64,000 bases of DNA, taken from contig NZ_CP009505.1 in the NCBI RefSeq assembly GCF_000970045.1, positions 3,496,808 to 3,560,807 of the forward strand, given 5' to 3'. The notes under the pieces are model-generated. The model searched no databases. It was given only the letters and a program-made list of their open reading frames with translations, and was not told the DNA's origin. The first letter of the stretch is position 1; the number at the start of each line of letters is the position of its first letter. A program made the translations under genes and the position numbers. Positions 14,557 to 15,034 of the stretch are shown here, piece after piece. The stretch comes from Methanosarcina sp. MTP4. Lineage in GTDB: Archaea; Halobacteriota; Methanosarcinia; Methanosarcinales; Methanosarcinaceae.

Positions 14557-15000
14557 TCAAGGACCGCTTACGACAGGATACCCTGCTGCTATCCATTCAT
14601 TGATGCCGCCCCCCATGTTATAAACATCAGTGTAGCCGGCATCTGCCAGCATCTAGCTCGCAACAGCACTTCTGCGTCCGGTCCTGCAGTAGACAAGTAT
14701 CTTTTCACCTTTGGGAACTTCGTTTATCCGGGCTTCTAAAAGCTGGTCAGGACCCAGATTTGACCCATAGCCATTTTCAAGCGGGATCAGAACTGCCCCT
14801 TCGATATGCGATTCGTTGAACTCGACAGGCGTGCGGACGTCAAGCAGGAAAAAGTCGTCTTTTTCAAGCATTTCCCTGGCTTCGTCCACATTCACAGTTT
14901 CAAATCCTGGCGGACTGGTTTCCGGCTTTGATACAAAAATCAATACTACACCCAAAATCACGAAAAAAAGGACGAGGTACGTCAAATTCTGTTTGTTCAA
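14557..15000 (-). CDS. Membrane-anchored rhodanese-like protein with in-frame TAG (possible pyrrolysine codon)
   Basis: A single N-terminal hydrophobic segment (about residues 7-23) is followed by a rhodanese domain with LLDVRTPVEF and the active loop CRTGRR (C105). After SAVAS, codon 116 is TAG (14653-14655). The frame continues with MLADAGYTDVYNMGGGINEW and PVVSGP to a TGA at 14557-14559. That tail is exactly what rhodanese domains have after the active loop, so the protein is 147 residues if the TAG is read and 115 if not. In Methanosarcina TAG can be decoded as pyrrolysine. The alternative is a recent nonsense mutation. The start is TTG with GGGGGG 6 nt upstream. Rhodaneses carry sulfane sulfur on the active cysteine. 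Confidence 0.75.
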
Positions 15001-15034
15001 ACTAGACCCCCCATTGCTACGTTTGAGACATGAA

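What the first reader, a model, noticed from the sequence alone, without database searches (positions are those of the whole stretch)
14557..15000. Rhodanese gene with an in-frame TAG that may be read as pyrrolysine
The sequence shows a normal rhodanese domain up to the active loop CRTGRR, one TAG codon, and then exactly the residues expected to finish the domain, ending at TGA. Methanosarcina is known to decode UAG as pyrrolysine in methylamine methyltransferases and to use TAG rarely as a stop. So this could be a Pyl-containing rhodanese, a TAG read by near-cognate suppression, or a fresh nonsense mutation. The TAG lies about 11 residues after the active cysteine.
Basis: partly seen in the sequence, partly recalled or inferred. 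Interest (0 to 1): 0.75.

Follow-up and report, generated by a model that had tools for sequence, protein, structure and literature searches.

The report
Rhodanese gene with one-off amber codon
A sulfur-transfer (rhodanese) gene in a pyrrolysine-using methane-making archaeon carries one in-frame TAG where its relatives carry a glutamine codon; it is most likely a recent mutation that the cell can partly read through as pyrrolysine, not an evolved pyrrolysine enzyme.

Summary
A membrane-anchored single-domain rhodanese on the minus strand (15000..14557) is intact except for one in-frame TAG at codon 116 (14655..14653). The 31 codons after it complete the Pfam domain and end at the same TGA as in relatives. 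The genome has a complete pylTSBCD cluster, including a tRNA-Pyl with a CTA anticodon, and two mtmB genes with in-frame TAG, so UAG can be decoded as pyrrolysine.

The TAG is private to this genome. The three other held species of the genus, strain KYL-1 and Methanosarcina sp. 2.H.T.1A.6 all have CAG (Gln), and 20 further orthologues have Gln, Lys, Thr, Asn, Arg or Ile codons. Best reading: a near-neutral nonsense mutation at a variable, probably exposed site, partly suppressed with Pyl, like Thg1 of M. acetivorans. Plain loss of function and a sequence error remain open: private TAA and TGA stops also occur in this genome (PAN, AlkD).

The control survey turned up stronger candidates elsewhere in the genome. 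A cation-efflux transporter has TAG at the same codon in all four species (dN/dS about 0.2). A NosD-like envelope protein has three in-frame TAGs.

The parts
14557..15000 (-). Membrane-anchored single-domain rhodanese gene, 147 codons with one in-frame TAG; TTG start (14998-15000), TGA stop (14557-14559)
   Evidence: Pfam PF00581 83.7 bits on the read-through product; open frame of similar extent and same TGA in relatives
14653..14655 (-). In-frame TAG, codon 116; CAG (Gln) in all close relatives
14653..15000 (-). ORF of the truncated 115-residue product: membrane anchor, catalytic Cys105 and first half of the helix after it
   Evidence: profile 2-75 of 102 only; predicted structure
14560..14652 (-). 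Read-through portion, 31 codons: rest of the helix, last strand and last helix of the rhodanese fold
   Evidence: No gaps against relatives; coding-like codon use, +9.8 bits over 31 codons; E126-129 and H132-138 in the model
14671..14688 (-). Active-site loop CRTGRR (Cys105 to Arg110)
   Evidence: Alignment A1: C105, G108, R110 invariant
15007..15012 (-). GGGGGG, a possible weak ribosome-binding site 6 bases before the TTG start
   Evidence: Read from the sequence; inference only

Best explanation
A recent C-to-T change in this lineage turned Gln116 (CAG) of an otherwise intact rhodanese gene into TAG. Because the organism has a CUA-anticodon tRNA-Pyl and the genes to make and charge pyrrolysine, the UAG is expected to be contested between the archaeal release factor and Pyl-tRNA. 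This would give mostly a truncated 115-residue protein and some full-length 147-residue protein with pyrrolysine at 116. Position 116 lies on the face of the post-loop helix opposite its conserved residues and holds Gln, Lys, Thr, Asn, Arg or Ile in orthologues, so the full-length form should fold and work, and the mutation is tolerated as near-neutral. Shown: private mutation, intact remainder, complete Pyl machinery, variable position. Inferred: actual read-through, its efficiency, and activity of the product.
For: CAG in G001, G002, G003, KYL-1 (G096) and Methanosarcina sp. 2.H.T.1A.6. No TAG in any of 25 other orthologues; residues Q, K, T, N, I, R. pylT (CTA), pylS, B, C, D in one cluster and two mtmB with in-frame TAG. 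TAG is a rare stop, 40 of 921 long ORFs. Only CAG to TAG, two silent changes and two membrane-anchor replacements are private to this lineage at sites where the four relatives agree; no indel or second stop. Whole-gene dN/dS against G003 0.20, excess of silent change P = 5e-6. Residue 116 is in helix 109-120, opposite the conserved S111/A114/L118 face. Published: an amber codon placed in a foreign reporter in M. acetivorans gave full-length product at an apparent 20-30% (PMC2933860); Pyl insertion is thought to be competition with the release factor without a required mRNA signal (PMC9499178). Clade-conserved in-frame TAGs in a CDF transporter and a NosD-like gene suggest that UAG is also read as sense outside the methyltransferases in this genus.
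Against: No direct evidence of read-through. This genome also has private nonsense changes to TAA (PAN) and TGA (AlkD), so private lesions are not clearly biased to TAG in the sample. dN/dS for the 31 codons after TAG is not significant alone (P = 0.11). The mutation may be too young to have been tested by selection. No PYLIS match in Rfam and only a weak fold (z = -1.8).
Confidence: 0.55

Rival explanations
1. Plain loss of function: the TAG acts as a stop, the 115-residue fragment is degraded, and the gene is a very young pseudogene. Any UAG suppression is too weak to matter.
For: The TAG is private to this genome. Private nonsense changes to TAA and TGA exist in other conserved genes of the same genome (PAN GAA to TAA, AlkD TGG to TGA). 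Published suppression at a non-native UAG is only partial (PMC2933860). Truncation removes the last strand and helix of the fold.
Against: No second lesion and an intact frame over the last 31 codons. Pyl machinery is complete, so some read-through is expected. The site accepts Lys and other residues.
Confidence: 0.3
2. The TAG is a sequencing or assembly error, or a mutation of the cultured line, and the natural gene has CAG.
For: Private stops turned up in four otherwise intact genes in 36% of the genome (rhodanese TAG, EEP nuclease TAG, PAN TAA, AlkD TGA), including PAN at 97% identity to intact relatives.
Against: The genome is a single contig with 99.9% completeness. CAG to TAG is a common type of mutation (transition). 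No raw reads can be examined here.
Confidence: 0.12
3. An evolved pyrrolysine rhodanese, in which Pyl116 near the active-site loop contributes to sulfur transfer or substrate binding.
For: The TAG is 11 residues after the catalytic Cys, in the helix that follows the active loop; the Pyl machinery is present.
Against: Not conserved in any relative, including three PylS-bearing species of the same genus. The residue varies freely and points away from the conserved face.
Confidence: 0.03

Closest known systems
Thg1 (tRNA-His guanylyltransferase) of Methanosarcina acetivorans, with Pyl by neutral evolution (Heinemann et al. 2009, as described in PMC2933860)
   Same: An ordinary gene with an in-frame amber in one species only, sense codon in relatives, in a Pyl-decoding methanogen; the amber is not needed for function.
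   Different: For Thg1, translation of the amber as Pyl and activity were tested experimentally; for this rhodanese nothing is shown beyond sequence.
Methylamine methyltransferases MtmB, MtbB, MttB
   Same: In-frame TAG in a Pyl-decoding archaeon; mtmB with TAG is present twice in this genome.
   Different: There the TAG is conserved across species and Pyl is thought to be catalytic; here the TAG is private and the residue variable.
Single-domain rhodaneses (GlpE, PspE, PF00581; PDB 1gmx, 3gk5, 3tp9 C-terminal domain)
   Same: Fold and active-site loop (Pfam 83.7 bits, Foldseek E down to 3e-10).
   Different: N-terminal membrane anchor; in-frame TAG in the helix after the active loop.

Membership tests
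Rhodanese domain (PF00581) | Whole-domain profile match above the curated cut-off | tested here: met
   83.7 bits against a cut-off of 22.2, profile 2-101 of 102 on the read-through product
Rhodanese domain (PF00581) | Active-site Cys in a CxxGxR loop | tested here: met
   C105-RTGR; C105, G108, R110 invariant in the alignment
Rhodanese domain (PF00581) | Sulfurtransferase activity | not testable with these tools
   Needs an enzyme assay
Pyrrolysine-decoding organism | pylT with CUA anticodon and pylS, B, C, D | tested here: met
   tRNA-Pyl at L051 3146-3217; PylS, B, C, D ORFs follow it; PylS N-terminal domain 142.5 bits
Pyrrolysine-decoding organism | Methylamine methyltransferase genes with in-frame TAG | tested here: met
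   Two mtmB, each with 1 TAG
Conserved pyrrolysine protein (criteria of Fujita et al. 2007, PMC1914089) | Same in-frame stop at the same position in two or more species | tested here: not met
   CAG in all close relatives, no TAG in 25 other orthologues
Conserved pyrrolysine protein (criteria of Fujita et al. 2007, PMC1914089) | Purifying selection on both sides of the stop | tested here: inconclusive
   Whole gene dN/dS 0.20, P = 5e-6; the 31 codons after TAG alone P = 0.11. Most of this signal may predate the mutation
Thg1-like neutral pyrrolysine acquisition | Sense codon in relatives, amber in one species, variable position | tested here: met
Thg1-like neutral pyrrolysine acquisition | Read-through product with Pyl detected, activity independent of Pyl | not testable with these tools
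   Needs mass spectrometry and enzyme assay
PYLIS-assisted pyrrolysine insertion | Structured element just after the UAG | tested here: not met
   No Rfam PYLIS match; fold z-score -1.8, 8 of 200 shuffles as stable. The element is not required for Pyl insertion (PMC2933860)

The most novel reading that the evidence does not exclude
The rhodanese is made partly as a full-length, active, pyrrolysine-containing membrane protein and is a natural snapshot of a protein newly exposed to the 22nd amino acid, in a genus where UAG is read as sense in several non-methyltransferase genes: a CDF transporter with TAG conserved in four species, and a NosD-like envelope protein with three TAGs.
Probability: 0.4. 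Interest if true: 0.6.

Novelty: new member of a known kind. Interest (0 to 1): 0.4.

Why it matters
Whether pyrrolysine spreads into ordinary proteins in amber-suppressing methanogens is an open question with one well-described case (Thg1). A private CAG-to-TAG change in an otherwise intact gene, beside intact sister species, is a clean natural test of whether in-frame UAG is tolerated when tRNA-Pyl is present. The control survey also found what such a gene looks like when the TAG is kept: a CDF transporter with TAG at the same codon in four species under purifying selection. That gene is a better candidate for a new pyrrolysine protein than the rhodanese.

Tried and rejected
Plus-strand reading of the same coordinates: stops and no domain. 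Chance similarity after the TAG: rejected, 31 ungapped homologous codons and the same TGA. Two adjacent genes rather than one: rejected, one Pfam domain spans the TAG and close relatives have a single frame. An ATG directly follows the TAG, but restart there would give only a 31-residue end fragment with no ribosome-binding site visible. Selenocysteine: not applicable, the codon is TAG. PYLIS element: no Rfam match, weak fold. TAG-specific tolerance of private lesions: not shown, since private TAA and TGA lesions exist too. A test for unusually near back-up stops after TAG-ended ORFs gave no signal (median 22 codons against 12).

Full report
Observation. The gene is on the minus strand, 15000..14557. 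Read with TAG as a residue it is a 147-residue protein: a predicted N-terminal membrane helix (residues 3-23), a linker, and one rhodanese domain with the active-site loop CRTGRR (Cys105). It has one in-frame TAG at codon 116 and ends at TGA. Pfam PF00581 matches 83.7 bits over profile positions 2-101 of 102 when read through, and 57.0 bits over 2-75 only when stopped at the TAG. The predicted structure (mean pLDDT 87) matches solved rhodaneses with Foldseek E-values down to 3e-10. Stopping at 115 cuts the helix 109-120 after the active loop in the middle and removes the last strand (126-129) and helix (132-138).

Is UAG decodable here? Yes, by gene content. The genome (4.21 Mb, one contig) has a tRNA-Pyl gene with a CTA anticodon followed by PylS, PylB, PylC and PylD ORFs (L051), and two mtmB genes each with one in-frame TAG. 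PylS is also present in the three other genomes of the genus. TAG is a rare stop: 40 of 921 ORFs of at least 150 codons in 1.53 Mb (4.3%), against 42% TAA and 54% TGA. Some genes do end at TAG, among them pylB itself, as published for M. mazei, M. acetivorans and M. burtonii (PMC2933860). So UAG is ambiguous in this organism.

Is the TAG conserved? No. At codon 116 the three congeneric species (G001, G002, G003), Methanosarcina sp. KYL-1 (G096) and Methanosarcina sp. 2.H.T.1A.6 all have CAG. Across 25 other orthologues in the family the residue is Gln, Lys, Thr, Asn, Arg or Ile, and never TAG. The change is one C-to-T transition. At sites where all four close relatives agree, the only private changes in this lineage are that transition, two silent changes and two replacements (I17G and A23V) in the membrane helix; there is no indel and no second stop. 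Whole-gene dN/dS against G003 is 0.20 (P = 5e-6); for the 31 codons after the TAG alone the signal is not significant (P = 0.11). That constraint may largely predate the mutation, so it does not prove that the downstream part is still translated. The local neighbours (Maf, a Zn-ribbon protein, an HTH regulator and an ICMT-like protein, named from their sequences) are syntenic in the congeners, as far as their contigs reach.

Would pyrrolysine fit? Probably. In helix 109-120 the conserved residues S111, A114 and L118 lie on one face; residue 116 is on the opposite face (inferred from helix geometry). The site accepts Lys, which pyrrolysine resembles.

Control survey. To ask whether in-frame stops in this genome are special to TAG, about 36% of it was scanned for stops inside coding-like frames, by codon bias and by tblastn with ORFs of relatives; the hits were then checked in the congeneric genomes. 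Two classes appeared. Private lesions, with a sense codon in relatives: rhodanese (CAG to TAG), an exonuclease/endonuclease/phosphatase (AAG to TAG), a PAN-type ATPase (GAA to TAA) and a DNA alkylation repair enzyme (TGG to TGA). They are not clearly biased to TAG, so ordinary nonsense mutation or base error is a live explanation for the rhodanese.

Kept lesions, the same stop in more than one species, were all TAG among those found. Besides mtmB there is a CDF cation transporter (G000:C1:311564-312556) with TAG at codon 57 in all four species, 83-92% protein identity, and downstream dN/dS 0.20-0.24 with P down to 4e-12. The TAG stands where a paralogue has Ser, one residue before the Asp of the TM2 metal-site motif (motif from general knowledge of YiiP-type CDFs). 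In other genera 10 of 14 orthologues have no stop, while G084 and G097 have one TAG, G096 a TAA and G085 a TGA; the positions of those stops could not be read. There is also a NosD-like envelope protein (about G000:C1:2148649-2154565) with a signal-peptide-like start and three in-frame TAGs, each just before a G[AV]D[FY]TSIQAAV module. G003 has four TAGs, including the two at the second and third modules. The two searches that paired pyrrolysine with cation transporters found no paper, and the one with NosD found only a general review of sediment archaea; the library holds open-licence papers only.

Mechanism. The best-supported model is competition at a single ambiguous UAG between the archaeal release factor and Pyl-tRNA, without a dedicated signal (PMC9499178). 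No PYLIS element was recognised. In M. acetivorans a foreign reporter with an introduced amber codon gave full-length product at an apparent 20-30% (PMC2933860). By analogy this gene should give mostly a 115-residue fragment and a minority of full-length Pyl116 protein. This step is inferred, not shown.

Comparison and verdict. It works like the Thg1 case of M. acetivorans (a private amber in an ordinary gene, tolerated). It is not a member of the class of conserved pyrrolysine proteins, whose defining test, the same amber in two or more species (PMC1914089), it fails. The rhodanese is thus a modest finding: real, but a one-off. The more interesting lead is that this genus keeps in-frame TAGs in a CDF transporter and a NosD-like protein.

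Noticed in passing
G000:C1:311564-312556 (-), L080 11565-12557; relatives L195-L197: CDF cation-efflux gene with in-frame TAG at codon 57, at the same codon in all four species of the genus, dN/dS about 0.2 downstream; of 14 orthologues elsewhere 10 are uninterrupted and four have one TAG, TAG, TAA or TGA (positions not seen). Strong candidate for a conserved pyrrolysine protein.
   Followed up: partly
G000:C1 about 2148649-2154565 (+), L211 and L113; G003 L212 and L214: NosD-like beta-helix envelope protein of about 1970 codons with three in-frame TAGs, each just before a G[AV]D[FY]TSIQAAV module; G003 has four. All internal stops are TAG.
   Followed up: partly
L060 12459 (G000:C1:411619-413172, -): PAN-type proteasome-activating ATPase interrupted by a private GAA-to-TAA change, relatives intact at 97% identity; fresh nonsense mutation or base error.
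   Followed up: partly
L095 12725 (G000:C1:1092581-1093291, -): DNA alkylation repair enzyme interrupted by a private TGG-to-TGA change; three congeneric species intact.
   Followed up: partly
L122 12430 (G000:C1:2712286-2713083, -): Exonuclease/endonuclease/phosphatase family gene with a private AAG-to-TAG change; G003 has the sense codon and a longer frame.
   Followed up: partly
L051 4922-6025: pylB itself ends at TAG with 23 further sense codons before the next stop, as published for some other Methanosarcinaceae.
   Followed up: no
window 14650-14652: An ATG directly follows the TAG, so restart could in principle yield a 31-residue end fragment of the rhodanese.
   Followed up: no
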